Made by a program: the position numbers and the translations under genes. Below are positions 171 to 61,345 of a DNA stretch of 64,000 nucleotides, piece after piece. Source of the DNA: Tateyamaria omphalii (GTDB lineage: Bacteria > Pseudomonadota > Alphaproteobacteria > Rhodobacterales > Rhodobacteraceae); NCBI RefSeq assembly GCF_014651375.1, contig NZ_BMWT01000005.1, positions 186,001-250,000 of the forward strand, in the 5' to 3' direction. Under the pieces are notes generated by a model. The model was not told the origin of the DNA and did not search any database. It saw only the letters and a program-made list of their open reading frames with translations. Position 1 is the first letter of the stretch; each line of letters opens with the position of its first letter.

Positions 171-185
171 GAACGCAAGGGGAAC
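171..185 (+). promoter_or_regulatory. SOS box (LexA operator) upstream of recA
   Basis: The bases read GAAC, seven spacer bases (GCAAGGG), GAAC, which is the direct-repeat LexA site known for alphaproteobacteria. It lies 62 bases before the chosen recA start, where SOS control of recA is expected. The match to both half-sites is exact. Confidence 0.75.
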
Positions 186-247: not shown

Positions 248-1258
248 ATGGCAACGGCAGACCTTTTGACCATGACAGACAAGAAATCGGCAGACAAACA
301 AAAGGCGCTCGACAGCGCACTGGCCCAGATCGAGCGTCAGTTCGGCAAGGGGTCGATCATGAAACTCGGCGATGAAAACGCCATTCAGGACATTAAGGCG
401 AGTTCAACCGGTTCGCTTGGACTCGACATTGCGTTGGGTATCCTGCACTGTGTGGCAGAGCAGCAAAAGGCGGGTGGGGTTTGTGCCTTTGTCGATGCAG
501 AGCACGCGCTGGATCCGCAATATGCCAAGAAGCTGGGCGTTAACCTTGATGAGCTGCTGATTTCGCAGCCGGACACAGGTGAACAGGCGCTTGAGATCAC
601 CGATACTCTGGTGCGCTCCGGTGCTGTGAACATGGTTATCGTTGATTCTGTGGCCGCTTTGACACCCAAATCAGAACTTGAGGGCGACATGGGCGACAGC
701 AGCGTCGGTGTGCAGGCCCGCTTGATGAGCCAGGCCATGCGTAAGCTGACGGGATCGATCAGCCGGTCGAACTGTATGGTGATCTTTATCAACCAGATCA
801 GGATGAAGATTGGTGTCATGTTTGGCTCGCCCGAAACCACCACAGGGGGCAACGCGCTGAAATTCTATTCTTCGGTGCGTTTGGACATCCGCCGCATTGG
901 AGCGCTGAAGGATCGTGACGAGGTCGTGGGCAATGCCACCCGCGTGAAAGTCGTCAAGAACAAGGTAGCGCCGCCGTTCAAGCAGGTGGAATTCGACATC
1001 ATGTATGGCGAAGGCATCTCGAAAATGGGCGAACTGCTCGATCTTGGCGTGAAGGCTGGTGTGGTCGAGAAATCGGGCTCCTGGTTCAGCTATGGTGATG
1101 AACGGATCGGGCAGGGGCGCGAGAACGCCAAGACCTTCCTGAAGGAAAACGGACGTATCGCCTACGAGATCGAAGACAAGATTCGTGCGGCGCACGGGCT
1201 CGACTTCGATATGCCCAAACATGAACAGATCGAGGATGACGATATCCTCGAAGCCTGA
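248..1258 (+). CDS. recA: RecA recombinase lacking the Walker A loop
   Basis: RecA forms filaments on single-stranded DNA, catalyses strand exchange and triggers LexA cleavage, using ATP. I chose the ATG at 248 because AAAGGA precedes it at good spacing and the protein then begins MATADLLTM, as in relatives; an upstream ATG at 227 has no such site. Walker B (VIVDSVAAL, about residues 129-137), loop L1 and the loop L2 region ([17 protein letters not shown]) and the C-terminus are all present. Between LDIALGI (ending at residue 65) and LHCVAEQQ (from 66) the segment of about 23 residues that carries GPESSGKT is absent. The frame is kept, giving 336 residues instead of about 356-360. ATP binding should be lost, so the product is predicted to be non-functional unless this is a sequence error. 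Confidence 0.93.
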
Positions 1259-4447: not shown

Positions 4448-6265
<1,818 letters not shown>

Positions 6266-6268
6266 ATC

Positions 6269-6327
6269 TGTCCTCAAGTAGCGTAGCGGTAGGACGTCAG
6301 TGTCCTCAAGTAGCGTAGCGGTAGGAC
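6269..6327 (-). repeat. Tandem duplication covering the typA ribosome-binding region
   Basis: Two perfect 27-base copies (6269-6295 and 6301-6327), 32 bases apart, lie directly before typA. On the typA strand each copy ends in TTGAGGACA, the probable Shine-Dalgarno, and starts with GTCCT, which could pair with AGGAC. Only the copy nearer the gene is placed to start typA. The five bases between copies differ. Confidence 0.85.
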
Positions 6328-6425
6328 ATAAATGTCCGATGCTGGCGACACGGTCTTGAGTAGACAGTGCGCCCGTTGTCCGGCCCATATAGCGCTGCAA
6401 TGCAGAATGAAAGGGCCAATGGCCT

Positions 6426-6761
6426 CTAGTGTGTCGCCGTGGTCGAGAAGAGTTGAATCACCACAATGCCCGTAATGATCAATCCCAATCCAAGGATGGC
6501 AGCCAGATCGAGGACTTGCCCAAACACCGCAAAGCCAATCAAGGCGATCAGGACGATCCCCAATCCAGACCAAAGGGCATAAGCGATGCCGACCGGAATG
6601 TATTTCAGCGCGATGCCCAGAAAGTAAAACGCGACCCCATAGGCCAGAACAACCAGCAGCGTTGGCCCCATCCGCGTGAACTGATTGCTGGCCTGAAGCG
6701 CGGTTGTGCCGATCGTCTCGGCGGCGACGGCCAGAACGAGGTAAACGTAATGAAGGGGCAT
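6426..6761 (-). CDS. Small multidrug resistance (SMR) efflux protein
   Basis: This 111-residue inner-membrane protein has four hydrophobic segments and the SMR signature, including the conserved membrane glutamate (Glu15 in AAETIGTT) that binds proton and cationic drug. It also has the stretch YIPVGIAYALWSGLGIVLI and a C-terminal FGQVLDLAAILGL segment as in EmrE. SMR proteins export quaternary ammonium compounds or guanidinium as dimers. It is 11 bases downstream of the Lrp-type regulator gene on the same strand, so the two probably form an operon and the regulator may control it. Confidence 0.92.
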   Translation of the reverse strand: MPLHYVYLVLAVAAETIGTTALQASNQFTRMGPTLLVVLAYGVAFYFLGIALKYIPVGIAYALWSGLGIVLIALIGFAVFGQVLDLAAILGLGLIITGIVVIQLFSTTATH

Positions 6762-24510: not shown

Positions 24511-24609
24511 TACAGAATGTCTGTTCGCCGCCCGTTCACTGTTTTCCCCTTGTTTCGTTCGCTTTGGAAAGGCGCGCATTCTACCCAATCTGTTACACGT
24601 AACAGATAC

Positions 24610-25635
24610 TCACCTCTCAATTGCCTTGATGGCTGACTGCTGGAAGTCCGGGCTGTGATGGCCATAGACACGCTCAATGGTCTCGGGGGATGTCGCGAAG
24701 TATCCTGCGGCGTCCCAAACGCTAGCACCTCCCTGCAAGACCCATGTGATGGCAGTATGCTTCAAAGTGTGCGGTGTTACTCCGCGCAACTGATCGCAGT
24801 CACAAGCCCTCGCAAAAGCGCGTTTTACATCACCCACGCGTGTGCCTTGGTATTCGACTGCCCATACGCTGCCAGAGGCTTTCCAGCGCCTCAGGTGCGC
24901 CAGTAGCTGTCTGGGGATGCGGGCGGGGGTCCGTCGCTTTGCCGTCTGCCTCTCAGCGTCCGCGCGGCGATACATGATCCCATTTTCAAGATCGAACCAA
25001 CCGCCGATAGTGTTCGATTCAAATCCCATCCGCAGTGTCGTGTCTTTGCGATTGCCCGTGTAAAGGCTGATGAGGATGAAGCGCGCCAAGTGTTTCGACT
25101 TGTGGCCCCGATACGCACGCCACAGCAATTGTGCGGCCTCGTCACGGGTGAGCCATCTGTCTTTGGATGGTGGCTTGTTGGGCAGCGTTACACTCGGGGC
25201 ATACGTTATGAAGCCCTCGCGATCGCAATAGTTCAGGGCGGCTTGAAGCGTTCCTAATTCTCGTCGTGTCGTCCCATCTGAGCGATCACGCCACTTTGCG
25301 TAGCGGCGGCATGTCTCGCCCTTTACGTCAGACGCCTTCAATTCAGACCAGAACGGCAGAAGCGCATCTATTGCGTATCCTATTCGTGCGGGATCAGCTG
25401 CCGTGTGAGCATATTCCTCCGCATAGATTGCAAGAACTTCGGCGCACGTTACGTTTTGCGGTTCATTTGCAGCACCTGTCCGCCCTTTGGTTGCGATGTA
25501 GGCTGCGAGGACCTTTTCAGCCGCTGCGCGGCTTGTGCAGCCCGTTGACCTGTCCTTTTGGCCGGTGTCTCGGATGTAGTAGTGGGGGCGGTGCTTGAAC
25601 TTGTGGAGCCTTGCTCCTTTGGCTGGTCTCGGCAT
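24610..25635 (-). CDS. int: Tyrosine-type site-specific integrase
   Basis: A 341-residue phage integrase. The N-terminal part (HKFKHRPHYYIRDTG) resembles arm-binding or DNA-contacting start regions of alphaproteobacterial phage integrases. A core-binding region lies around residues 60-140, and the catalytic domain follows with Arg196 (LYTGNRKDT), HTLK (His289-Lys292) and Tyr324 (ERVYGHHSP). The second arginine of the usual R-HxxR-Y set is lysine here. It is the last gene of the leftward operon and faces the attachment site. Confidence 0.93.
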   Translation of the reverse strand: MPRPAKGARLHKFKHRPHYYIRDTGQKDRSTGCTSRAAAEKVLAAYIATKGRTGAANEPQNVTCAEVLAIYAEEYAHTAADPARIGYAIDALLPFWSELKASDVKGETCRRYAKWRDRSDGTTRRELGTLQAALNYCDREGFITYAPSVTLPNKPPSKDRWLTRDEAAQLLWRAYRGHKSKHLARFILISLYTGNRKDTTLRMGFESNTIGGWFDLENGIMYRRADAERQTAKRRTPARIPRQLLAHLRRWKASGSVWAVEYQGTRVGDVKRAFARACDCDQLRGVTPHTLKHTAITWVLQGGASVWDAAGYFATSPETIERVYGHHSPDFQQSAIKAIER

Positions 25636-28752: not shown

Positions 28753-29108
28753 GCGGCTACCCAAGATTGCTGGCCGACGGTGAACTTTCCGTCAGGGCTG
28801 AGCACGTGAAACAACTGGTCAAGCGTGAGATGCGCGTAGTTTCGAGGAATCTCTTTTACGTACGAGGGCTTTCCGTCCGGCCCATCACCCATCGGGCGGA
28901 TACGCGGGCCGGTTCCGTTCGGGCGTTCGATGCGCCCTTTCTTTACCACGGGGATGCTCGCTAATCTGCAGGGCACCCATTGGCCGTAAGTGTTGCGCGT
29001 CTCAGCGTAGTACATTGGCTTGTCACCGGACGACGGGTTGGGGGGTGTTACGCCGCCGTCCGATGTTGCGGTCTGCGCCGCACCTGCCTGCTCGTGAGTG
29101 GTGTTCAT
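28749..29108 (-). CDS. Phage protein of unknown function
   Basis: A 119-residue protein with a low-complexity N-terminus (about 30 residues rich in Ala, Thr, Gly, Pro) and a more ordered C-terminus (YVKEIPRNYAHLTLDQLFHVL). Its start overlaps the stop of the Sak4-like ATPase gene. Its place suggests a role with the recombination genes. Confidence 0.65.
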   Translation of the reverse strand: MNTTHEQAGAAQTATSDGGVTPPNPSSGDKPMYYAETRNTYGQWVPCRLASIPVVKKGRIERPNGTGPRIRPMGDGPDGKPSYVKEIPRNYAHLTLDQLFHVLSPDGKFTVGQQSWVAA

Positions 29109-30205
29109 TGGGCTTCCCCCGCGGCCGCGGCTTCCCCCGCGGCCGCGGCTTCCCCCGCGGCCGCGGCTTCCGCCGCCGCTTTCATGGCAGCCTCTTTTTC
29201 TTCGGCAGTGGGTTGGGGGTCGTCGCCCTCAAACAGGTCGTCACCGCCGCTTTCTTCCGCGGAAACTGCCGTTGACTTGAGTTCTTCTATGATCGTCTGA
29301 ACCACAGACTTTTGTTCTTGGCTCAGCGGTTTGTAGAATGCGTTCAGTGCATTCTTTCCCCCGCGTGCAGCAGCCCGTGCGTCGTCCAGCAATTTCTTGG
29401 CTTCGGGGTCCGTTCCACCTTCATCTGCCCATGCACGCATCTTTTCACCAACGGACACATCGACGCGCTTGTTGCCTGCAAACAGGCCGCGAAAATGATC
29501 GGGGCACTTGAGCAGAACAGGCTGACCGGGAAACTCCGGCGTCATCAACATGGACGCCGACATTTCGAAAATCAGATCGCGGTCCGCGGCAATGTCCCAT
29601 GGCAAGTCTGCGCGACGAAGTTTGGTGTCGCGCGCATTCTTCCGGTTGTTGCCGAAACCTTCTTGCATGACGGGTTTTGCGCGCATGCAGATGATGACAT
29701 GGGTCTTGGCCTGCACGATGCGCTCGACGAGGCGACGGTAGCGTGGCTTGACCGATGCCCAAGCCAATTGACCCACTCGTGCCGCCTTTTGGGCATCCCC
29801 GCCTGACAGGCGTTCAACCTCACGAGCTTGCATTTCAAGGACACCGCCAATGCCTTCCCAGGCGTGCGAGAAAGAGTCGATGACGATGGCCTTGGCGTCG
29901 GTCTTTTCGATCTGGTCGATGACCGCAATCCACCGTTCGGGCGGAAAGCCAACCATCTCGCCTTTGACCTCGGGCCCGAAGTTGTAGTGCTGCATCTCCG
30001 GGAAGTCGCGGCGGTAGTGCAGGGCGCGCTTGTTCTCGGTGTCGATGACCGCCACAGGACCGCCATCGGCCAGCCCACGCGCCATCAGCAGGGCCGAATA
30101 TGTCTTGCCCGTTCCGGATCCGCCGGCCATCGCAACAGCAACGCGCAGGGAGTAGTCTTGCGTCATCTCGATGTCGGGGAAGGTCAGTGTTTGATCAAGT
30201 GCCAT
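29105..30205 (-). CDS. Sak4-like phage recombination ATPase
   Basis: A 366-residue RecA-fold ATPase: Walker A AGGSGTGKT (residues 27-35), an acidic Walker B strand AIVIDSFSHAWEG (near 112-122), and CMRAK/KCPDHF segments typical of the AAA_24/Sak4 phage group. Sak4 proteins are RecA-like annealing or pairing proteins that work with single-strand binding protein. It sits next to an exonuclease gene, as in phage recombination pairs. The C-terminus ends in near-perfect AAAAGE repeats. Confidence 0.8.
   Translation of the reverse strand: MALDQTLTFPDIEMTQDYSLRVAVAMAGGSGTGKTYSALLMARGLADGGPVAVIDTENKRALHYRRDFPEMQHYNFGPEVKGEMVGFPPERWIAVIDQIEKTDAKAIVIDSFSHAWEGIGGVLEMQAREVERLSGGDAQKAARVGQLAWASVKPRYRRLVERIVQAKTHVIICMRAKPVMQEGFGNNRKNARDTKLRRADLPWDIAADRDLIFEMSASMLMTPEFPGQPVLLKCPDHFRGLFAGNKRVDVSVGEKMRAWADEGGTDPEAKKLLDDARAAARGGKNALNAFYKPLSQEQKSVVQTIIEELKSTAVSAEESGGDDLFEGDDPQPTAEEKEAAMKAAAEAAAAGEAAAAGEAAAAGEAQ
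29111..29164. repeat. 18-base tandem repeat, three copies
   Basis: The unit GGCTTCCCCCGCGGCCGC occurs three times without a mismatch and a degraded fourth copy follows. It encodes the AAAAGE repeats at the C-terminus of the Sak4-like protein. Each unit contains overlapping palindromes (CCGCGG and GCGGCCGC), so the copy number is likely to vary. Confidence 0.92.
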
Positions 30206-30207
30206 AA

Positions 30208-31455
30208 TCAGTCTCCAAAAATCTCAGTTGCAGAAATCGTGTTGTCAGGTGTGGGAAACGGCGCCTGAAAGCTGGCGGTCTTGGCATAGACATCCTTGCC
30301 AGTCGCAGATCGCCGTGCGTCCTGCTCAGCCTTCCGAGCCGTGAATTTGGCGTGGTAGAACTCGGGTACTTCAAGCGTGTGGACGTTGCGCGGGTATCCC
30401 GGCCAGTGACCTTGCTCGAGGCAGAGTTTCCAAATCTGGCGTGCGCGCTCAGTTTTCATTGCCGCGAGTTCGAGGTCCAGACTGGACAACTCAATCACAC
30501 ACACCTCATAGGGCGCGGTCTTTTCCTGAAAGACGAACCGGAACGCGCGATCCTCACCCGTGGCAGCACGCCAGACATCGAGGTAATGCCGAGCCTGAAT
30601 ATCGTACCCGTAGTTCATCACCGATCGCAGGCACGCCTCAGGGCTGGCGTCTTCGCAGGTTTTGAGGTCGTACAAAGGTAAGGATGGATCGGCTGGCGCC
30701 TGGTCAACCATGGCCCGGCAAGTTGCACCATCGATTTCAGCTATGGCAACGACCTCTGCGTCGTCCGGTGAGAACGAAACATTCAAGGCGCTGAGCGTTG
30801 CATCCAGCTTTGCGGACATCGCGAGGATATCGTTTTCTTGGTCAGCCTTGAGCGGAACGAGACCTTTGGCGCGGACGTCCGCCTCCCATTCCTTGGCAGC
30901 TTTGGTTGAGGCGGCACCGTTGGACGCTAGAACGTCGTCAGGGAATACGGCCCAATTCGACCGACCCTGCAGAATGCAGGCGTGCGCGGCCTTGCCCACG
31001 TCGAACGTCTTCTTGGTCGTGGGTTCCAAATCCGGATTCATCCGGGGGTGCGCCGTCCAGACGTGAAGCGGGCTTTGCGTGACCAGCTTTCGGGCCAGTG
31101 TCGAGGACAGGGATGGTTCAGCGCGGAGGTGATCAGCGTGATACCGATCCTCGGCGATGAAGTGATGGAAACCCGGCTCGAGAACGGTGCGGACAAGCGT
31201 CACCGCGCCGGTTGGCGTCTGGTGGCTCATGCCCTCGGTCAGAACGGTCTTGACCGCCCCATTGTCCGCCATAGCCGGAAAAATGACCGTGCCATCGCGC
31301 AACCAGACTTCGAGGACGCATTCCCCCGCTTTGATGTCCTCGTGCCGTTGCAGGACAGTCCCGGATGTGATCGCCTCGCAGAGTTCCGTGAGTGTGGCGT
31401 GCGCGTCGCGATCCGGGAAGCGTTCGGACAGACGTTCTAGGGCGTGGTCGGTCAT
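30208..31455 (-). CDS. PD-(D/E)XK exonuclease (RecE/DUF3799-like) with an extra N-terminal domain
   Basis: A 415-residue protein. Residues about 115-340 match phage PD-(D/E)XK exonucleases: SSTLARKLVTQSPLHVW, GKAAHACIL (His158), a D251...YDLKT core (Asp263, Lys265) and GYDIQARHY. Such 5'-3' exonucleases make 3' tails for annealing proteins like the neighbouring Sak4 homologue. Residues 1-75 (TDHALERLSERFPDRD, VWLRDGTVIFPA) are extra and look like a separate small domain. The C-terminal 60 residues are less conserved in look. Confidence 0.8.
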   Translation of the reverse strand: MTDHALERLSERFPDRDAHATLTELCEAITSGTVLQRHEDIKAGECVLEVWLRDGTVIFPAMADNGAVKTVLTEGMSHQTPTGAVTLVRTVLEPGFHHFIAEDRYHADHLRAEPSLSSTLARKLVTQSPLHVWTAHPRMNPDLEPTTKKTFDVGKAAHACILQGRSNWAVFPDDVLASNGAASTKAAKEWEADVRAKGLVPLKADQENDILAMSAKLDATLSALNVSFSPDDAEVVAIAEIDGATCRAMVDQAPADPSLPLYDLKTCEDASPEACLRSVMNYGYDIQARHYLDVWRAATGEDRAFRFVFQEKTAPYEVCVIELSSLDLELAAMKTERARQIWKLCLEQGHWPGYPRNVHTLEVPEFYHAKFTARKAEQDARRSATGKDVYAKTASFQAPFPTPDNTISATEIFGD

Positions 31456-39835: not shown

Positions 39836-40212
39836 CAGAACGCATCCGCGCCGCCGATCTCAAACGAGTGCTGGCCAAGCCCAAGAACAAGTACGGCGCT
39901 GAGAAGACGACCGTGCACGGAATCAAGTTCGATTCCAAGCGCGAGGCTAAGCGATACGCGGAACTCTTGGCACTACAGAAGGCCGGTGTGATCGCCGAAT
40001 TGCGCCTACAGGTGCCTTTGATGCTTGAGGGTCGGAGCGGGCCACTCAGGACGCGGACAGGTCGCCAAATGCGGATCACCGTCGATTTCCAGTACGTCGA
40101 ACTATGTACCGGGCTCACCATTTGGGAGGATGCGAAAGGGAGTCCCACGCGGGACTACGAGGTTCGGCGGGCTGTGGCAGCTGCTCAAGGCGTGGAGGTT
40201 CGCGAAGTATGA
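39832..40212 (+). CDS. DUF1064 family protein, nuclease-like
   Basis: A 126-residue protein with the DUF1064 pattern: KYGAEKTTVHGIKFDSKREA, ELLALQKAGVI, a QVPL strand, VDFQYVE and EDAKG. Members are predicted PD-(D/E)XK-type nucleases, possibly junction resolvases, in phage replication regions. GTG start overlapping the upstream stop. Confidence 0.82.
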   Translation: MTERIRAADLKRVLAKPKNKYGAEKTTVHGIKFDSKREAKRYAELLALQKAGVIAELRLQVPLMLEGRSGPLRTRTGRQMRITVDFQYVELCTGLTIWEDAKGSPTRDYEVRRAVAAAQGVEVREV

Positions 40213-41345
40213 GCGACCTTCAATGCGGTTTCTCGCCCTCAAAGGCACGGGGAAAGCGTCCGGTCCCCATGTGGGCTGACAGGTTCCTGCGGGACACGAT
40301 GGAACTGAGCGCCGAGGAAATCGGAGCCTATCACCTGGTTCTCTACGCGATGTGGAAGCGGCCTGATTGCAGTCTGCCAGCCGATAGCAAGAAGTTGGCA
40401 CGCATTGCCCGTGTGAGCGTCCGCAAGTGGAACAGCCAGATTGGACCATCGATCCTTCCACTCATGGATGAGTTGGACGGTGTCCTCACGAGTAAAAAAC
40501 TGACTGAAGAAGCGCGTCAGACTGAGCAGTGGTGCACCGCTCAACACGTCCGAAAATGCGAGGCGTGCAAATTAAGTCGAGATAAATCGAACTTTTCTGA
40601 CGCGCCTTCTTTCGGCAGAAAAGATATCGAAAATCCCGGCAAGTCATTGAAAACAAATGACCCACGATTAACCGGGGATACCACCCGGGATGAACCGGGG
40701 AACCTACCGGGGATAAACCATCCCAAAGACCCAACATATATGATTGGTGATGACGCGGGTACGCGCGAGACTGACGATCTGCCTTTTCCTGATGATGGAA
40801 ACCAATCGGTTCCGAATGACGTGAATCTGAGGGGCAGGCTGCTTGTCGTCTGCAAGGTCGATCCGCAGTCTGGCCTAACCGGGCATGGTGGGCAGATGCT
40901 CGGCACGGCTTCCGACATGCTGGTGGTCTCTCGGTGGAAATCTGATCTGCAGATGACCGACGACGAAATCGTCACCGTCGCAGCCGAGGTCATAGCCCGA
41001 AAGCCAGACGGACCACCAAATGGTTTCAGCTACTTTTCGAAGGCCATGGCCCGATACGCCGGTCAGCGTGACCAGCAAGCACTTTCCCCGATCACCCCAA
41101 CCGCAACGACAGGAGGCAGCCATGCCAGCACCTCACGAAACGGACCAGGCAATTCGATCGCAAGCGTCGCAGCTCGGCGTGTCGCTGAATTGGCACAAGG
41201 GCCGGATGTACGCGACCCGGTCAACCAACCAGTGCCCAGCCTTGGAGGCGATCATTCGCAGCGAGATGGTCCCGGCGACGGAGACGGAAATCTACGCTTG
41301 GTTGGGCGAACTGGATACGATGACGATCAAGCGCAAGGCCACTGA
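40209..41345 (+). CDS. DUF1376 phage replication-region protein
   Basis: A 378-residue protein. Residues 15-100 match DUF1376 (WADRFLRDTMELSAEEIGAY, LVLYAMWKR, LARIARVSVRKWN), a winged-helix found in phage replication initiators. The middle is polar and low-complexity; residues about 205-285 form another ordered part (ASDMLVVSRWKSDLQMTDDE). The last 75 residues overlap the next gene in another frame and look disordered (Gly, Asp, Ser-rich). Confidence 0.78.
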   Translation: MSDLQCGFSPSKARGKRPVPMWADRFLRDTMELSAEEIGAYHLVLYAMWKRPDCSLPADSKKLARIARVSVRKWNSQIGPSILPLMDELDGVLTSKKLTEEARQTEQWCTAQHVRKCEACKLSRDKSNFSDAPSFGRKDIENPGKSLKTNDPRLTGDTTRDEPGNLPGINHPKDPTYMIGDDAGTRETDDLPFPDDGNQSVPNDVNLRGRLLVVCKVDPQSGLTGHGGQMLGTASDMLVVSRWKSDLQMTDDEIVTVAAEVIARKPDGPPNGFSYFSKAMARYAGQRDQQALSPITPTATTGGSHASTSRNGPGNSIASVAARRVAELAQGPDVRDPVNQPVPSLGGDHSQRDGPGDGDGNLRLVGRTGYDDDQAQGH

Positions 41346-44898: not shown

Positions 44899-45258
44899 AT
44901 GGCAAACCCAAACCCCAGCCCGGCCACCCGGTTCAAGGTCGGGGATAGGCCAAATCCGCAAGGCAAGACGTCAGAGCAGCGTCGCTTGGAAATTGAAAAC
45001 GCGGAGCGCGCAACAAGGTTGCACAACCGCATGCTCGCGAGCCTTGAGCGTGAGCTTGAAGAGGCTGAAGAAGCAGGGGACAAGGCTGCGATCAAAATGA
45101 TCAACGCCAATATCTTGAAGTTGATCAAGGATGCGCAAGACCGCGGCCTTGGTTCACCCGAGCAGCTGATCGATCACAGGTCCAGTGACAAGAGTATGAC
45201 GCCGCAGGTGATAACACGTCGAGTGGTTGATCCGAAGTCTGATGGAACGGGGGAGTGA
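44899..45258 (+). CDS. Small terminase subunit-like (DUF5681-like) protein
   Basis: A 119-residue basic protein with the pattern FKVGDRPNPQGKTSEQRR near the start and a central helix (RMLASLERELEEAEEAGDK). It directly precedes the large terminase, with GGAGAGG upstream. It likely recognises packaging DNA. Confidence 0.68.
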   Translation: MANPNPSPATRFKVGDRPNPQGKTSEQRRLEIENAERATRLHNRMLASLERELEEAEEAGDKAAIKMINANILKLIKDAQDRGLGSPEQLIDHRSSDKSMTPQVITRRVVDPKSDGTGE

Positions 45259-46669
45259 AGACCAGCTTGAGCTGGAAATAGACACACCTCGTTGGGCCAT
45301 ACCGCTCCAAGCAAGTGAAACTGCTGTTGGACGTGTCGTCCGATACAAAGGAGCGTGGGGCGGTAGGGGGTCAGGTAAGTCCCATGAGTTTGCCGGGATG
45401 GTGGTCGAGGAAATGATCGCCGACCCTGATTGCAGCGTTGTCTGCGTCCGCGAGATTCAAAAGTCTCTTACTCTGTCAGCAAAGAAGCTGATTGAAGCGA
45501 AGATCGTCGCGTTCGGGGTTTCACATCTGTTCCGGGTTCTAAAGACCCATATTGAACGCATCGACGGATCGGGGATGTGCATCTTTCAGGGGATGCAGGA
45601 CCACACCGCGGACAGTGTGAAATCGCTCGAAGGGTTTAAGATTGCGTGGGTCGAGGAAGCACAAAGCCTTTCTCAACGCAGCCTTGATCTGTTGCGGCCG
45701 ACAATTCGCGCTGCGGGGTCACAAATCTGGTTCACTTGGAACCCTCGTCGACGCGGCGATCCAGTCGAAAAGCTCTTGCGAAGTGGTAAGGGCAAACGAG
45801 AGGACGCAATTGTCGTCAGGGCCAACTACACGGACAATCCGTTCCTGCCTGTTGAACTTCTTTGTGAGGCTAAAGATGACCTCGAAAACAACCCTGATGG
45901 GTTTGGTCACACCTGGTTGGGTGAGTACGAAAACATTGGGTCCAAGGTCGTCATTCCCGCGGCATGGATTCGATCAGCCATCGGGCTCGCGCAGGACTTG
46001 GGCTTGGAGATCACGGGGAAAAAGTATGCCGCATTGGATGTCGCTGGCGGTGAAGAGGGCGGTGACGAGAATGCAATGGCTCGCCGCAAAGGGCTTGAGC
46101 TGACGAAGCTCAGTACATGGAATGGTCTGGACACAGCCATCACGACGCAAAAAACGGCTCGGATCGCTGTCAATGAAGGCATAGACGAAGTCTACTACGA
46201 CAGCGTGAGCGTTGGTGAGGGTGTTACCGGAGAATGGGCGTCGATGGGGCGTCGCGGCGAGCAGCCTGACAACATGCAGTTCTTTCCTTGGTCGGGAGGT
46301 GATGCGGTTCTCAATCCGGAAGAACGCGTCGAACCAACGAACCCGGAAAGCCCTCTGAACAAGAACCAGTACCACAACCTGAAAGCGCAAGGTTGGTTCT
46401 CACTCCGGAAGAGGTTTGAGAACGCGCACAAGGCCCGAAACGGCAAACCGTTTGATGCGGATCACATGATCAGCATTCACCCGGAAATCGAAGATCTTGA
46501 GTTGCTTGAGGAAGAGCTTTCGCAACCGCAGCATAAACCAAGTGGAAAAGGCAAAACCATGGTCGACAAACAGCCGGATGGAGCTGCATCGCCCAATAGG
46601 GGTGACGCGACCATGATGGTGTTTTTCCCTGTTCAGCGTTTGCGACCCACAGCCCAGGTGTTCTTGTGA
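45242..46669 (+). CDS. Large terminase subunit (PBSX type)
   Basis: The packaging motor and nuclease. The 475-residue protein has Walker A GGRGSGKS (residues 40-47), Walker B IAWVEEA (134-140, with catalytic glutamates), the coupling motif SQIWFTWNPRR, and a nuclease domain with AALDVAGGEEGGDEN and YYDSVSVGEG. The ATG at 45242 overlaps the small-subunit gene by 17 bases; a TTG at 45227 is less likely. Confidence 0.92.
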   Translation: MERGSEDQLELEIDTPRWAIPLQASETAVGRVVRYKGAWGGRGSGKSHEFAGMVVEEMIADPDCSVVCVREIQKSLTLSAKKLIEAKIVAFGVSHLFRVLKTHIERIDGSGMCIFQGMQDHTADSVKSLEGFKIAWVEEAQSLSQRSLDLLRPTIRAAGSQIWFTWNPRRRGDPVEKLLRSGKGKREDAIVVRANYTDNPFLPVELLCEAKDDLENNPDGFGHTWLGEYENIGSKVVIPAAWIRSAIGLAQDLGLEITGKKYAALDVAGGEEGGDENAMARRKGLELTKLSTWNGLDTAITTQKTARIAVNEGIDEVYYDSVSVGEGVTGEWASMGRRGEQPDNMQFFPWSGGDAVLNPEERVEPTNPESPLNKNQYHNLKAQGWFSLRKRFENAHKARNGKPFDADHMISIHPEIEDLELLEEELSQPQHKPSGKGKTMVDKQPDGAASPNRGDATMMVFFPVQRLRPTAQVFL

Positions 46670-54862: not shown

Positions 54863-55200
54863 TCGACGCCGTCCGCGTTGTTGCGCAGGGCGGCGTTGCA
54901 AGCTTGGACTGCGGTGCGCTCGAATTTCTTGATGAATTCAAGGAACTGACGACCGACAGGTCCATTCAATACACGGGTGGAAAGCAACCATACATTGGCC
55001 CGATTCCGGCAGCGTCCATCCGGTCTGCGTCCGAAAGGTTCGGGTCCGAGGCGGCGTCATTCACCCGCTGCATCCGCGCAATGGATGTCGCCTATCTCGA
55101 AGTCGTCCGCAGACACCCGGACGAGCCAACCGTGAATTTGAGCCGAAACTTTGGCCCCGGCGACCTGCTGGCGGCTGGCAAACCATCAGGGGGTGCATGA
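54458..55200 (+). CDS. Tail assembly chaperone G-T fusion by -1 frameshift
   Basis: A ribosome slipping back one base at AAAAAAC (54853-54859) reads past the G stop and continues in the -1 frame from 54859 to 55200. This adds 113 residues (LVDAVRVVAQGGVASLDCGA...) and gives a 247-residue fusion. The -1 frame has no good start of its own. It ends two bases before the tape measure gene, as in the lambda G-GT system. Confidence 0.8.
54853..54896 (+). promoter_or_regulatory. Programmed -1 frameshift signal
   Basis: The heptamer A-AAA-AAC is in the correct zero-frame phase, the stop TAG follows at once, and a hairpin with ACGCCG/CGGCGT ends (54866-54871 with 54891-54896) begins six bases after the heptamer. 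Slippery site, spacer and structure are all standard. Confidence 0.82.
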
Positions 55201-55201
55201 T

Positions 55202-57391
55202 ATGGATATTGCGCTTCTCGGCGTCGAAGTGGACAGCAGTGGTGTAGTCAAAGGCACGCGCGACCTTGATCGCCTCGGTGATCAGGCAGCCCGCACCGAA
55301 CGCCAGACGAATAAGATGGCAACGGGCGTAAACCGAGGCATGACCGGGGCAGGGCGTGCTGTCGAGCAGTTTGGCCAACGCGCCAAGGTTTCGTCTTTCA
55401 ACACCGCAAATCTGGCCGCTCAGGGCAACGATGTAATTGTGATGGCCTTGGCCATGCAGAACCCGTTGCAGCTTGCTTTGCAACAGGGCACGCAAGTTAG
55501 CCAGGTACTCAACACCATGGGCAGCCGGGGCGACATCATCCGAAACCTCGGCGCCGCCTTCACTTCCATGATCAATCCGGTTTCGTTGGCGACAATTGGG
55601 ATCATTGCCGGTGGTGCCGCGCTTGTGCAGTGGGGTATTTCGGCGGCTGGCGCGGGTCGCGACGCCAAAGATTTCGAAGACACAATCGAAGATACCAGTG
55701 AAGCCGTTGAAGGTTACATCGATCTACTTCGATCGCAGGATGACGCTTTCGATTTAGGTTTCGGTCGTTTTCAAGATGACCTCAAGAGGACATCCCAAGC
55801 GTACAAAGACCTTCTGGCAATCGCCAAGGTCGATGCCATCAATTCTGTGGCCGCAGCAACGACAGCGCTTTCTGAAAGCGTCACAGGGTTCCGGTTGTTC
55901 AGCGGTGACAGCATGTTGCAGGGAGCGATCCCGAACGCTGGTGACCTCTTGGGGATTGAAACAGGCCTCCGCGGTAACATCACCGCAATGAAAGACGCTC
56001 GCGAGGAAGCGCGCCAGTTTCTCGAGCTCTTAGAACTGGTAAACACCAGCGACAGCTTGTCATCGCAATTGAGTGCGGCTCTGCAGCTTCGTGATGCCTT
56101 TGTCGCAATTGTTGGTCCTGCAGAGGACATGACCACACAGCAACTTGAGTTCATGCGCAATCTCTCCCTGTCCATTCAGCAAATGGAAGCGCTAGCGGCT
56201 GCGACAGATGACCAGGCAATTTCACAAGCTGCGGTTAGCGAGGAAATTCGCGCGGGCTTTGAAGCTGCGGCTGCGGCACAGACGACACTCACGGATGAAA
56301 CGACTGAATACATCAGTCGCATGGCGGACGCCTTTGAAGCGGCGTCTGACCTGAAAGAGGAAATTGGCGACGCCGCATTCGAGGCGGTGAGGTTGGCTGG
56401 CGTTGATATGGCTGGACCGATTTCAGCGGCCACATTGGAAGCTGCCAAACTAGCTGGCACCCTTGAGATTGCCGTGAGCGCCGCTGCATCTCTCCTGAAT
56501 CTGCAAAATAGTCTTGAGTACTCCGGTCGAGGCGGCAACCCTTTCCGTTTCGGTGATCCAATTGGCCGTGATCCCAATGCTGGAACAGGCACTCTTTCGG
56601 CAGATGCCCAGTCCCTGATTGATGCTGCCAATCGCAGATCGCGTCGCAGAGGTGGTCGCGGCGGCGGCCAAAGCGAGGCCGAAAAACAACGCCAAAAGGA
56701 TCTGCGCGCAACCGAGAAGATCCTAAATAGCCTGTTCACAGCACAGGACACTTACAACGACGCACTTGATCAGGCGAACCGCCTCTACAAGATCGGCCTC
56801 CTTCCCGCTGGAGCGTACCAAGAGCACCTCAAGCAGCTGAAGGTCGAACTGGCTGAGGCCGAGTTCGGACAGGTCTATCAGGCGATTGATGACATCTCTC
56901 AGTCGATGGCCGACGCCATTGTTCAGGGTGAGAACTTTGGCGATGCGATCAAGAACGTCATGCAGCAAGTAGCGGCAGACATTCTGGCATCTGGCATTCG
57001 TGAGTCCCTGTTGCAGGTTTTTAACATACCATCGATTGCTGGTGGTCGTCGGGGCGGAGGATTGCTGTCCAGTTTGTTCGCCGGCCTGTTTGATCAGGGG
57101 GGCAACATCCCGTCAGGACAATTTGGCATCGTAGGTGAGCGTGGACCGGAACTTGTTAGCGGACCAGCAAGTGTGATGGGCCGCCAAGACTTCAGCAACG
57201 CCATGCGCGGCGGAGGTGGGGCGCAAAAACTCGAAGTCGGTATTCATTTTGAAAACACGGGAGCGATGCGGGCGTTCGTCTATGATGCTGCAGGTCAGGT
57301 CGTCGCCGAGAGTCGACCAGAAATCGTAAGCGAAGCGGTCGGTTCCGTTCAGCGTGGTGCGCGGCGCTCAAAGAACTTCCTTGGGGTCTGA
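55202..57391 (+). CDS. Tail tape measure protein
   Basis: A 729-residue protein setting tail length. It starts MDIALLGVEVDSSGVVKGTR, has a hydrophobic region around 120-150 (FTSMINPVSLATIGIIAGGA), long helical segments and a Gly-rich end with QFGIVGERGPELVSGP, a common tape-measure tail motif. It is short for this family, suggesting a tail of roughly 100 nm; that estimate assumes the usual residue-to-length relation. Confidence 0.92.
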   Translation: MDIALLGVEVDSSGVVKGTRDLDRLGDQAARTERQTNKMATGVNRGMTGAGRAVEQFGQRAKVSSFNTANLAAQGNDVIVMALAMQNPLQLALQQGTQVSQVLNTMGSRGDIIRNLGAAFTSMINPVSLATIGIIAGGAALVQWGISAAGAGRDAKDFEDTIEDTSEAVEGYIDLLRSQDDAFDLGFGRFQDDLKRTSQAYKDLLAIAKVDAINSVAAATTALSESVTGFRLFSGDSMLQGAIPNAGDLLGIETGLRGNITAMKDAREEARQFLELLELVNTSDSLSSQLSAALQLRDAFVAIVGPAEDMTTQQLEFMRNLSLSIQQMEALAAATDDQAISQAAVSEEIRAGFEAAAAAQTTLTDETTEYISRMADAFEAASDLKEEIGDAAFEAVRLAGVDMAGPISAATLEAAKLAGTLEIAVSAAASLLNLQNSLEYSGRGGNPFRFGDPIGRDPNAGTGTLSADAQSLIDAANRRSRRRGGRGGGQSEAEKQRQKDLRATEKILNSLFTAQDTYNDALDQANRLYKIGLLPAGAYQEHLKQLKVELAEAEFGQVYQAIDDISQSMADAIVQGENFGDAIKNVMQQVAADILASGIRESLLQVFNIPSIAGGRRGGGLLSSLFAGLFDQGGNIPSGQFGIVGERGPELVSGPASVMGRQDFSNAMRGGGGAQKLEVGIHFENTGAMRAFVYDAAGQVVAESRPEIVSEAVGSVQRGARRSKNFLGV

Positions 57392-58123: not shown

Positions 58124-58719
58124 GACGTGGTTTGGCACAGGCGCAGATCGATGCACGCAGGGAAAACCCTCTTTTCCCATGTTCGTTCGTGCACATCGAT
58201 TGGCCGGACATCGCGGTTCGGGTGTTTTCCGGGTCGGGTGTCATCCAGTGGGACGGCCAAACATGGAATGGCGTCACCACACGCCACGGGACAGTGGCCG
58301 ATATGGTGATCCCCGAAACGGGTGAGCAAGTCGCGCCGCGTGAGGCGACGTTTCGGATTATCGGTCAGATTGCCGAGGTTCTGAACGACGCCGCTGATCA
58401 ACGTGTTGCGGGGCGCGCGGTGAGAGTCTGGTCTGCGACAACAACGGAACCGGGCGGGAACGCGTTGGCAAGTGAACCAGTTTTGGAGTTCACAGGTTAT
58501 GTCAGCGATACGGGCTATCAAGAGCGCCGCCAAGGCGATGACGCGCCCACACCGGCCTTGCTGACTGTCGATGTCACCTCAGGCGTCTCAGCTCGTGCGA
58601 GCGCGGAAATGGTGCATTCGAGTGAGGATCAGCAGCGGCTCTATCCCGGCGACACCTTCTTTGACCGGACCGCGAACGCTAGAATCTGGGAAAGGACTGT
58701 GCGGTGGCCTGCAAATTGA
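58114..58719 (+). CDS. Tail-tip protein, DUF2163-like
   Basis: A 201-residue protein with VHIDWPDIAVRVFSGSGVIQ, WNGVTTRHGTVADMVIPETG and a C-terminal RTANARIWERTVRW. The layout is like DUF2163/gene transfer agent tail proteins preceding a cell-wall hydrolase. It overlaps the next gene by 16 bases. Confidence 0.68.
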   Translation: MELRRGLAQAQIDARRENPLFPCSFVHIDWPDIAVRVFSGSGVIQWDGQTWNGVTTRHGTVADMVIPETGEQVAPREATFRIIGQIAEVLNDAADQRVAGRAVRVWSATTTEPGGNALASEPVLEFTGYVSDTGYQERRQGDDAPTPALLTVDVTSGVSARASAEMVHSSEDQQRLYPGDTFFDRTANARIWERTVRWPAN

Positions 58720-59135
58720 CGGCAGAAACGGTCATGGAGGCCGTCCACAAGACAATGGAAGGTCCTTTTGTACGGGGTGTCAGTGATTGCTGCACCGCCG
58801 CCTGTCAGGCGTTCGGCGAGGTCTGGGGTGAAGACCCCTTGGGTCCGGTGGAGTACCGGACTGCAATCGGCGCTGCGCGGTTCCTGTTGCCTTATGGCGG
58901 CATCGATGGATGCGCAAAGGCAATTGCCGCGCGCGCCGGGCTTGTACTTGGCGACGCCGCACCCGGTGCCTTGGGTGTGATACGTCATCAAGCGGCTGCC
59001 ACATCGGATCCGGAGCTATCTCGCGGGTGGGTCATGGGCATCTGTGTTGATGGCCGCACCTGGGCAATCAAGGGCGAACACGGGTTCATCCTGGCGGAGT
59101 TTGATCTACAGGGGTGGCGTCCGAAATGGGCCTAG
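58704..59135 (+). CDS. NlpC/P60-like or DUF6950 tail-tip peptidase
   Basis: A 143-residue protein from a GTG, with a possible catalytic cysteine in GVSDCCTAACQAFGEVWG, and WVMGICVDGRTWAIKGEHGF carrying a later histidine region. This resembles small NlpC/P60-like proteins (DUF6950) of phage tail tips, used to open the peptidoglycan on entry. Confidence 0.7.
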   Translation: MACKLTAETVMEAVHKTMEGPFVRGVSDCCTAACQAFGEVWGEDPLGPVEYRTAIGAARFLLPYGGIDGCAKAIAARAGLVLGDAAPGALGVIRHQAAATSDPELSRGWVMGICVDGRTWAIKGEHGFILAEFDLQGWRPKWA

Positions 59136-61345
59136 CTGCTCTTGTCACGCTGATTAAAGCGGGTGCGAGTTTCGGGGCTGCCTTGACAGCCGTATATGGT
59201 GGAATTGGTTCTCTAGCTCTCAGGCTGGGGGCCGGATTTCTCTTGAACCGTGCCGCCGCCGCGATCTTTCGTCCTGACGCTCCGAGCTTTGGCACCTTGC
59301 CACAGGCAGACATAAGGCGAGAATTGCAGTTTCCGCGCGAGCGGCCCGCATATCGGTTCCCCTATGGTCGGTTTCGGGTGACGTGCACGCCGGTGCCATA
59401 CCCGGTGATTGGTGACCTGGCCTACGGGGCGTTCTTGGCAAGTTCACGTGAGAGTGCTGGACCGTTTGATGTCTACATCGAAAACCAGAAGATCAATTTC
59501 ACCGGCGATCCATATGACTTTGCGGGTCCGGGCGCTGTGGCTGCCGATGGTCCCTACAGAAACTACATTCGGTTCTGGATTGGGCGAGGTGGCCACACCT
59601 CGCCCCCGCAGTGGTATCTGGACAATGCGGGATACTTTCAGGGGGGTGATCCGCTTCGCTGGAAGCGGTCCGACGCAGGTCAGGGCAGGACAGTTGTGTT
59701 TGTTGTTATGGACCATGGTCCGCAAGATACAGCGCAGCAACGGTGGGCATCCGCTGTCCCATTGATTGAGCTTGAGGGGCCGTGGATGGCGGTCTGGGAT
59801 CCGCGCGATCCCGCCCAGACCTTTGAAGACAAATCGACATGGCAGTTTCGCGACGATCCATTCCTGTGCGCCCTGGACCTTGCCACCCAGAACCCGTTCC
59901 GACCGTACCGCGCGGAAAACCTGATGATTGACCTGTTCAGGGATGCGGCGGATGTCGCGGAACATCGGGTGCCCTTGAAGAACGGTGGCAGCGAGGCACG
60001 TTACCGCTGTGCTGGCGTGATTGTGTTGAACGGCCCGGAGCTTGAAGACCTGTTGCAGCCGTTCGTCGCTGCCGGGGCAGGGCGGACAATCGACTTGGGC
60101 GGGCAATTGGGCATCGTTCCTGGTGTGTGGCGGGAGCCGGTTGCGGAAATCACCAATAGTCTTGGTGGCGTCGCATTCTCAGCCATCAGGCCCGATGAGG
60201 AACGTTTCTCCGAAATTAGGGTTCAGTATACCAGTGAGACGCGGGACTATTCGCCTGCCGAGCTTCAACCATGGACCATTCCGCAACCCGAAGGCGTCGT
60301 GGCGACTGGTGGTGTCATGAGCCTTGATCTGAGCATGGTGCCATCTGCAACGCAGGCGATGCGGATCCGAAACATCAGGGGTAAGGAAAACGCGGCACAG
60401 AAGACGCTGGAAGTCATGGCGCTGCCTCATGAGGCGGCTGATATGATGCCCGGATCGATTGGCATAGCGAACCTGCCTGAACCGTATGGCAGTCGCATGA
60501 ACGGCTCTTATGAGGTCGTAACCATCGGTCATACCGCAGATTTGGTTGGTGACAACGGGTTCGCGATGCGCAGTCCCATCGCGTTCCGAGAACTGAGCGA
60601 AGACGTGTATGCTTGGAACCCGTTCGAGGATGAAGAAGATGTTTTTGATCCTCCCGCAAGTCTTCCACCCGGTGCCGTACAGCTTCCGGGTGAGATCAGC
60701 GTAGAGACAGGCAATACGGTCAATTTGAACACCGGCGGAACGATCATTCCGCGGATCAAATACACCTTTGGTCCATCATCATCCGGCGGCGTGACCGGGT
60801 ACGAAGTGCAGAGCAGCGTATCTGGTAATGAGGCATGGGTGAATGAGGGCTTTGTCTCGGTGCCAGATCCTGAGCCAACAGGTGGGGGTCCGTTCTTCGG
60901 CACGGAGCCAAGCACATCCGAACCAGCCATACTATCGGGGTTCATTCAGTCCGCTGCCGGGGAGCTGCGCGACTTAAGAGTTCGTGCCGTCGCTTCGGGT
61001 GGCGCGAGTGATTGGCGACAGATAGACGAGGTTGCCTCGGTCGTGAGCATTGTCCTTGCTGCACCGACCGTTGGCTCACCGATCCCCGGTACCGGCGAAA
61101 TCAGCGTCTCGTACACGGCTCCAAACAGCAACGAAGCCAAATCAATCGAGGTTTGGGGGTCAGACAGTGATGATGTCGGCTTGGGCGACATGCTGACGAC
61201 GATTCCGGTCACCAACGCGCAACAGGTGTCCTACACAGAAACCGGCCTGACGTCAGGCCAAACGCGCTACTATTTTGCCCGGTCTCGCGGCGACTTCGGC
61301 AACGCCAGCGCATTCACAGCGTCCATATCCGAAACAGCACTGTAA
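59126..61345 (+). CDS. Central tail protein (host-specificity J-like)
   Basis: A 739-residue protein. It starts with a hydrophobic glycine-rich segment (GLAALVTLIKAGASFGAALT), common in J-like proteins. A long tail-hub part follows (RELQFPRERPAYRFPYGRFR, WASAVPLIELEGPW, LATQNPFRPYR). The C-terminus from about residue 520 has fibronectin type III-like repeats (GEISVSYTAPNSNEAKSIEV). It probably forms the tail tip hub. ATG 59126; a GTG at 59114 is an alternative. Confidence 0.8.
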   Translation: MGLAALVTLIKAGASFGAALTAVYGGIGSLALRLGAGFLLNRAAAAIFRPDAPSFGTLPQADIRRELQFPRERPAYRFPYGRFRVTCTPVPYPVIGDLAYGAFLASSRESAGPFDVYIENQKINFTGDPYDFAGPGAVAADGPYRNYIRFWIGRGGHTSPPQWYLDNAGYFQGGDPLRWKRSDAGQGRTVVFVVMDHGPQDTAQQRWASAVPLIELEGPWMAVWDPRDPAQTFEDKSTWQFRDDPFLCALDLATQNPFRPYRAENLMIDLFRDAADVAEHRVPLKNGGSEARYRCAGVIVLNGPELEDLLQPFVAAGAGRTIDLGGQLGIVPGVWREPVAEITNSLGGVAFSAIRPDEERFSEIRVQYTSETRDYSPAELQPWTIPQPEGVVATGGVMSLDLSMVPSATQAMRIRNIRGKENAAQKTLEVMALPHEAADMMPGSIGIANLPEPYGSRMNGSYEVVTIGHTADLVGDNGFAMRSPIAFRELSEDVYAWNPFEDEEDVFDPPASLPPGAVQLPGEISVETGNTVNLNTGGTIIPRIKYTFGPSSSGGVTGYEVQSSVSGNEAWVNEGFVSVPDPEPTGGGPFFGTEPSTSEPAILSGFIQSAAGELRDLRVRAVASGGASDWRQIDEVASVVSIVLAAPTVGSPIPGTGEISVSYTAPNSNEAKSIEVWGSDSDDVGLGDMLTTIPVTNAQQVSYTETGLTSGQTRYYFARSRGDFGNASAFTASISETAL

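What the first reader, a model, noticed from the sequence alone, without database searches (positions are those of the whole stretch)
248..1258. recA is in frame but lacks the Walker A (P-loop) segment
The reading frame goes from LDIALGI (residue 65) straight to LHCVAEQQ (residue 66). RecA proteins have about 23 residues between these points, including GPESSGKT, which binds ATP. The rest of the protein is intact and the loss is a multiple of three (about 69 bases at the 442/443 junction). A strain with this allele should be recombination- and SOS-deficient. It could be a genuine deletion, a laboratory allele, or an assembly/sequence error.
Basis: partly seen in the sequence, partly recalled or inferred. 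Interest (0 to 1): 0.9.

Follow-up and report, generated by a model that had tools for sequence, protein, structure and literature searches.

The report
recA gene missing its ATP-binding stretch
In this marine bacterium's genome record the main DNA-repair gene recA has lost a clean 69-base piece that holds the ATP-binding loop; the gene would be dead as written, but the loss looks brand new or may exist only in the record, so it is a curiosity to re-sequence rather than a new kind of RecA.

Summary
The only recA found in this genome (248-1258) reads in frame but lacks exactly 23 codons (69 bp, junction 442/443, on a codon boundary). The lost stretch holds the Walker A loop. All 99 relatives' recA rows compared have it. 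In a sample of 120 family genomes, 116 match a Walker A pattern; of the other four, this is the only one where a recA without Walker A was seen. The stretch was not found elsewhere in the genome, nor a second RecA, nor ERF, RecT or Ku.

The rest of the gene is pristine: selection looks unrelaxed, with one private residue in 320 columns; the SOS box and LexA are intact. So the loss is evolutionarily brand new, not an adapted P-loop-less RecA. As written it should be null for recombination and SOS induction (inferred, untested).

Relatives show no repeat at the breakpoints. Without reads I cannot decide between a deletion in the sequenced clone (about 0.5) and an error or alteration of the record (about 0.45). 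Interest is low to moderate until a PCR or reads settle it.

The parts
248..1258 (+). recA with an internal 69-bp, 23-codon in-frame loss; 336 aa
   Evidence: TIGR02012 488.3 bits, cut-off 325.3; PF00154 and PF21096
442..443 (+). deletion junction, on a codon boundary (codon 65 / codon 66); 0-1 nt of junction microhomology as judged from relatives
171..185 (-). SOS box GTTC-N7-GTTC upstream of recA, conserved in relatives (that this is the LexA operator is recalled knowledge)
   Evidence: a box within 250 bases upstream in 91 of 99 relatives, all 19 genus relatives among them
488..514 (+). retained FVDAEHALD stretch (residues 81-89) with the invariant glutamate E85 (catalytic Glu by recalled RecA biochemistry)
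635..667 (+). retained Walker B stretch [11 protein letters not shown] (residues 130-140; label recalled), D133 invariant
785..895 (+). retained [37 protein letters not shown] (residues 180-216; DNA-binding loop region, label recalled)

Best explanation
This is an ordinary chromosomal recA, in the genus that holds Tateyamaria sp. syn59 (Rhodobacteraceae), from which one very recent event removed 23 codons: the stretch before the P-loop, the whole Walker A motif and the residues just after it. As written, the product should not bind ATP. It therefore should not form the active filament on single-stranded DNA, exchange strands or stimulate LexA self-cleavage, so the allele is null (inferred). 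It is not an adapted P-loop-less RecA. Shown: the gap, the lack of the segment and of a second RecA in the genome by the searches made, unrelaxed constraint on the rest of the gene, intact LexA and SOS box. Inferred: the null phenotype. Undecided: whether the cells carry it (about 0.5) or only the record does (about 0.45). The confidence below is for 'one-step, brand-new, loss-of-function as written'.
For: 23 residues missing against 99 of 99 relatives' rows, all with GPESSGKT. In a family sample of 120 genomes, 116 match a degenerate Walker A pattern (the places were not checked to lie in recA); of the 4 without, one has a full-length recA with a variant Walker A, two gave no recA hit, and the fourth is this genome. 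A single recA in the own genome; the segment's best match elsewhere is E 0.106. Constraint outside the gap: median pairwise dN/dS of this gene 0.018 (18 pairs with a value of 19; 0.019 for the 10 with dS below 1.5) against 0.025 among the 108 pairs of the other 19 with dS below 1.5; private residues 1 of 320 columns, in the variable C-terminal tail. SOS box kept and LexA with both domains. Of 38 ORFs compared over about 41.5 kb around recA, recA alone lacks 10 or more residues against the nearest relative G011. E. coli RecA K72R, a single change in this loop, is reported to cut ATP hydrolysis about 600-fold (PMC5663514, passages).
Against: No phenotype or expression data. A null recA should be costly in a free-living bacterium, which argues against a stable state. 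No repeat at the ends and no Ku hit in the genome, so the route of a real deletion is unexplained. Besides I328, residue G302 is also rare (shared by at most 3 of the 99 rows), though not private within the genus set. AlphaFold did not help: mean pLDDT 52.5 for this protein and 59.1 for an intact control, both too low to compare folds.
Confidence: 0.9

Rival explanations
1. Record only: the cells have an intact recA, and the 69 bp were lost in assembly, curation or some other alteration of the sequence record. This agrees with the best explanation in everything except the physical existence of the allele.
For: The loss is blunt and falls exactly on codon boundaries; judged from relatives the junction would have 0 nt (84 of 99) or 1 nt (15 of 99) of microhomology. 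No unusually stable structure in the stretch in the two relatives folded (z -0.70 and +0.58). No sign of relaxed constraint in the gene. No other recA without Walker A was seen in the family sample.
Against: Assemblers usually drop sequence at repeats (recalled), and none is seen here. The assembly looks good: 100% complete, 0.75% contamination, 22 contigs. About 41.5 kb around the gene shows no other loss of 10 or more residues against G011.
Confidence: 0.45
2. Real null allele, buffered by the prophage in the same window: a DUF3799 (exonuclease VIII-like) nuclease next to a P-loop AAA_24 protein could offer annealing-type recombination in place of RecA.
For: 30208-31455 matches PF12684 and phrog_412 'exonuclease VIII'; the adjacent 29105-30205 matches PF13479 AAA_24 above its cut-off. 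Phage Sak4 is described as a RecA-core-only, ATP-dependent annealing protein (PMC5928155, passages).
Against: The AAA_24 protein's PHROG (phrog_1366) has no known function, and no solved structure matched at E 0.01. The link to Sak4 is my own inference. Prophage genes are probably repressed, and no annealing protein is known to me to trigger LexA cleavage. It would not explain why recA broke.
Confidence: 0.04
3. A functional P-loop-less RecA kept for an ATP-independent role, as some Rad51 paralogues work without a complete Walker A (recalled).
For: The frame is open and everything else is conserved.
Against: The conservation is exactly what an intact ATPase would show up to a very recent event. 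No second RecA was found for it to assist. No other genome examined was seen to share the gap.
Confidence: 0.02

Closest known systems
RecA (TIGR02012 equivalog; PF00154; E. coli RecA)
   Same: Orthologue by sequence (488.3 bits against a cut-off of 325.3) with RecA C-terminal domain, Walker B stretch, conserved Glu and loop region, SOS box upstream
   Different: Lacks 23 residues that equal positions 55-77 of the 353-residue E. coli chain (54-76 in the usual numbering without Met, recalled), worked out from the match of query 66 to chain 78; these include the Walker A lysine
RecA Walker A point mutants (E. coli K72R; B. burgdorferi K88R)
   Same: Same functional element hit
   Different: Those are single substitutions in a full-length protein that still binds ATP (PMC5663514; PMC4786428; passages); here the whole element is gone
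Laboratory recA deletion alleles (recalled)
   Same: Expected phenotype: recombination- and SOS-deficient
   Different: Those that I recall are mostly large or marked deletions; this is a short, unmarked, in-frame loss in a wild-type-looking genome

Membership tests
RecA (TIGR02012 / PF00154) | overall sequence above the curated cut-off | tested here: met
   TIGR02012 488.3 bits against 325.3; PF00154 404.8 against 27
RecA (TIGR02012 / PF00154) | Walker A P-loop (GPESSGKT) | tested here: not met
   absent from the protein; 99 of 99 relatives' rows have it; the Walker A pattern has 0 matches in the own genome
RecA (TIGR02012 / PF00154) | Walker B and conserved Glu stretch | tested here: met
   [11 protein letters not shown] at residue 130 and FVDAEHALD at 81; D133 and E85 invariant, most other columns of these stretches invariant or nearly so, in 30 sequences
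RecA (TIGR02012 / PF00154) | RecA C-terminal domain (PF21096) | tested here: met
   92.7 bits against 27
RecA (TIGR02012 / PF00154) | same chromosomal neighbourhood as relatives' recA | tested here: met
   ORFs on both sides match the stretches fetched around recA of G011, G004 and G002, and of G016 with only about 5 kb upstream fetched; gene order itself was not checked
RecA (TIGR02012 / PF00154) | ATP-dependent filament formation, strand exchange, LexA co-protease | not testable with these tools
   needs protein or strain

The most novel reading that the evidence does not exclude
A free-living marine alphaproteobacterium that really lives with a P-loop-less RecA, either as a natural RecA-null or with RecA doing an ATP-independent job, with the prophage nuclease/AAA pair covering some recombination.
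Probability: 0.03. Interest if true: 0.75.

Novelty: new member of a known kind. Interest (0 to 1): 0.27.

Why it matters
If the cells carry it, the strain is a spontaneous recA-null. Work on its gene transfer, prophage induction or DNA repair would then be misleading, and it would be a ready-made RecA-minus marine strain. If only the record carries it, it warns that a genome scored 100% complete can hold a silent loss in a core gene that family models do not flag: TIGR02012 still scores far above its cut-off.

Tried and rejected
Second RecA or a displaced copy of the segment elsewhere: not found. The six other places have E 0.106 or weaker; I read one of them (L113, the place at C4:175813-175935), which by eye is a P-loop kinase-like ORF. 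Rescue by phage-type annealing proteins of Pfam ERF or RecT: no hit. Ku-type end joining as the route of a blunt deletion: no Ku hit. Slippage between direct repeats: 0-1 nt of junction homology in 99 of 99 relatives. In a scan of 20 nt either side of both breakpoints in three relatives, one (L006) had short repeats of 6-7 bases, in registers that would not give this junction. Hairpin bridging the ends: not seen in the two relatives folded.

The same junction in other genomes: 9 of 295 family genomes match a degenerate junction pattern, one of them this genome. I fetched 4 of the other 8 and none reads as recA. The remaining 4 were not fetched; all 4 code F at the junction position, as do two of the four that I read. 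AlphaFold comparison: inconclusive.

Literature: the searches (9 of 9 papers listed; 15 of 146; 9 of 9; 15 of 88; 10 of 10; 8 of 100) listed nothing that I recognised, from titles and abstract openings, as a natural or recorded RecA with the P-loop deleted. Only open-licence PMC papers are held.

Full report
WHAT IS THERE. The frame 248-1258 (+) encodes a 336-residue RecA. NCBIfam calls it recombinase RecA (TIGR02012, 488.3 bits, cut-off 325.3), and Pfam finds the RecA core and the RecA C-terminal domain. Between I65 and L66 exactly 23 residues are absent relative to 99 recA rows from relatives, each of which contains GPESSGKT. The junction 442/443 lies between codons. From the match of query residue 66 to residue 78 of the 353-residue E. 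coli chain, the loss equals positions 54-76 in the usual numbering without Met: the stretch leading into the P-loop, the P-loop with its lysine, and the residues just after it (numbering convention and lysine recalled).

WHERE IT IS. The window is G000:C5:186001-250000 of a 4,747,451-bp, 22-contig genome scored 100% complete and 0.75% contaminated. The SOS box (171-185) upstream is present, and a box stands within 250 bases upstream in 91 of 99 relatives, all 19 genus relatives among them. Downstream lies a gene that I read by eye as alaS.

NEIGHBOURHOOD CHECK. Over about 41.5 kb around recA the ORFs match the stretches fetched around recA in G011, G004, G016 (about 5 kb upstream only) and G002; gene order was not checked. 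Of 38 ORFs chosen by conservation, recA alone lacks 10 or more residues against the nearest relative G011. Other differences in that call: a 9-residue gap in the read-through part upstream of alaS against G011; a 48-residue gap in one ORF against G002, in a 58%-identity alignment; several smaller gaps against G016 in one 24%-identity alignment; and extra residues in this genome, up to 11 at a time against G011 in one 68%-identity ORF, and 26-30 in the ORF 4451-6457 against three relatives.

IS IT UNIQUE. All 19 other genomes of the genus have the segment. In a family sample of 120 genomes at 95% completeness or more, 116 match a degenerate DNA pattern for GPESSGKT. The places were not checked to lie in recA, and the pattern also admits other residues at the serines: one extra match in G123 plainly is not GPESSGKT. 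Of the four genomes without a match, G078 has a full-length recA with GPEASGKT, G083 and G088 gave no recA hit at E 0.001 (490 and 300 contigs), and the fourth is this genome. A degenerate pattern for the junction matched 9 of 295 genomes, this one included; four of the other eight were read and are not recA.

IS ANYTHING REPLACING IT. The own genome shows one RecA, no copy of the missing segment, and no ERF, RecT or Ku hit. LexA is intact with DNA-binding and S24 peptidase domains. A prophage-like region in the same window (about 24.6 kb onward) carries an exonuclease VIII-like DUF3799 protein next to an AAA_24 P-loop protein. AAA_24 proteins include, by my recollection, Sak4-type annealing proteins; PMC5928155 (passages) describes Sak4 as RecA-core only. 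I did not test whether this protein is one.

HOW OLD IS IT. Pairwise dN/dS of the remaining 318 codon columns is no higher for this gene than among relatives: median 0.018 over the 18 of 19 pairs with a value, or 0.019 over the 10 with dS below 1.5 (my reading of the table), against 0.025 over the 108 pairs of the other 19 with dS below 1.5. The nearest relative is at dS 0.84 with 8 non-synonymous differences. Against the 19 others the gene has 1 private residue in 320 columns, I328 in the variable tail; the others have 0 to 14. Against all 99 rows two residues are rare, G302 and I328. If the gene had been free of constraint since the loss, a rough Poisson bound (1 observed, upper limit 4.7, about 730 non-synonymous sites; my arithmetic) puts the event within the last 1-2% of this lineage's terminal branch. 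So the loss is very young, or is not in the organism at all.

HOW COULD IT ARISE. In 84 of 99 relatives the junction would have no shared base and in 15 of 99 one. Single-strand folding of the segment in two relatives gives nothing unusual. Bacterial deletions of this size often have short repeats at their ends, and assemblers usually drop sequence at repeats (both recalled), so the ends favour neither route. A blunt, codon-exact edge is also what a made deletion or an edited record would show; chance alone gives a codon-exact edge in about a third of in-frame losses, more where one base is shared. I put about 0.5 on a real deletion in the sequenced clone and about 0.45 on a change of the record.

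WHAT IT WOULD DO. The Walker A loop binds the phosphates of ATP (established knowledge). K72R in E. coli RecA, a single change there, still binds ATP but hydrolyses it about 600-fold more slowly (PMC5663514, passages). Without the whole element ATP binding should be lost, and with it the extended filament, strand exchange and stimulation of LexA cleavage (inference). With LexA intact the SOS regulon would stay repressed. AlphaFold models of this protein and of an intact control were both of low confidence (mean pLDDT 52.5 and 59.1, pTM 0.49 and 0.59), so they say nothing about folding.

VERDICT. This is a broken copy of a very well-known gene, one event deep, of undecided physical reality. It is worth a PCR; it is not a new class of RecA.

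Noticed in passing
window 24610-63587: Prophage-like region that begins about 3 kb past the last ORF that matches G011 (near 21.5 kb): integrase (24610-25635), exonuclease VIII-like DUF3799 protein (30208-31455), primosomal-type protein (40104-41345), large terminase (45227-46669), tape measure protein (55151-57391), tail fibre protein (59114-61345); its far end is not seen in the window.
   Followed up: partly
window 29105-30205 (-): P-loop AAA_24 protein directly beside the DUF3799 nuclease; PHROG 1366, unknown function; could be a Sak4-type annealing protein.
   Followed up: partly
genomes G083 and G088 (unnamed, same family): No recA hit at E 0.001 although scored 98% and 100% complete; both are fragmented drafts (490 and 300 contigs), so perhaps assembly gaps.
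   Followed up: no
window 24523-24537, 58447-58461, 59431-59445, 60727-60741: Four further GTTC-N7-GTTC matches, no more than chance gives (5 found in all with the recA one, 2.77 expected).
   Followed up: no
G078 (L150): RecA with a variant Walker A, GPEASGKT, in a full-length gene.
   Followed up: no
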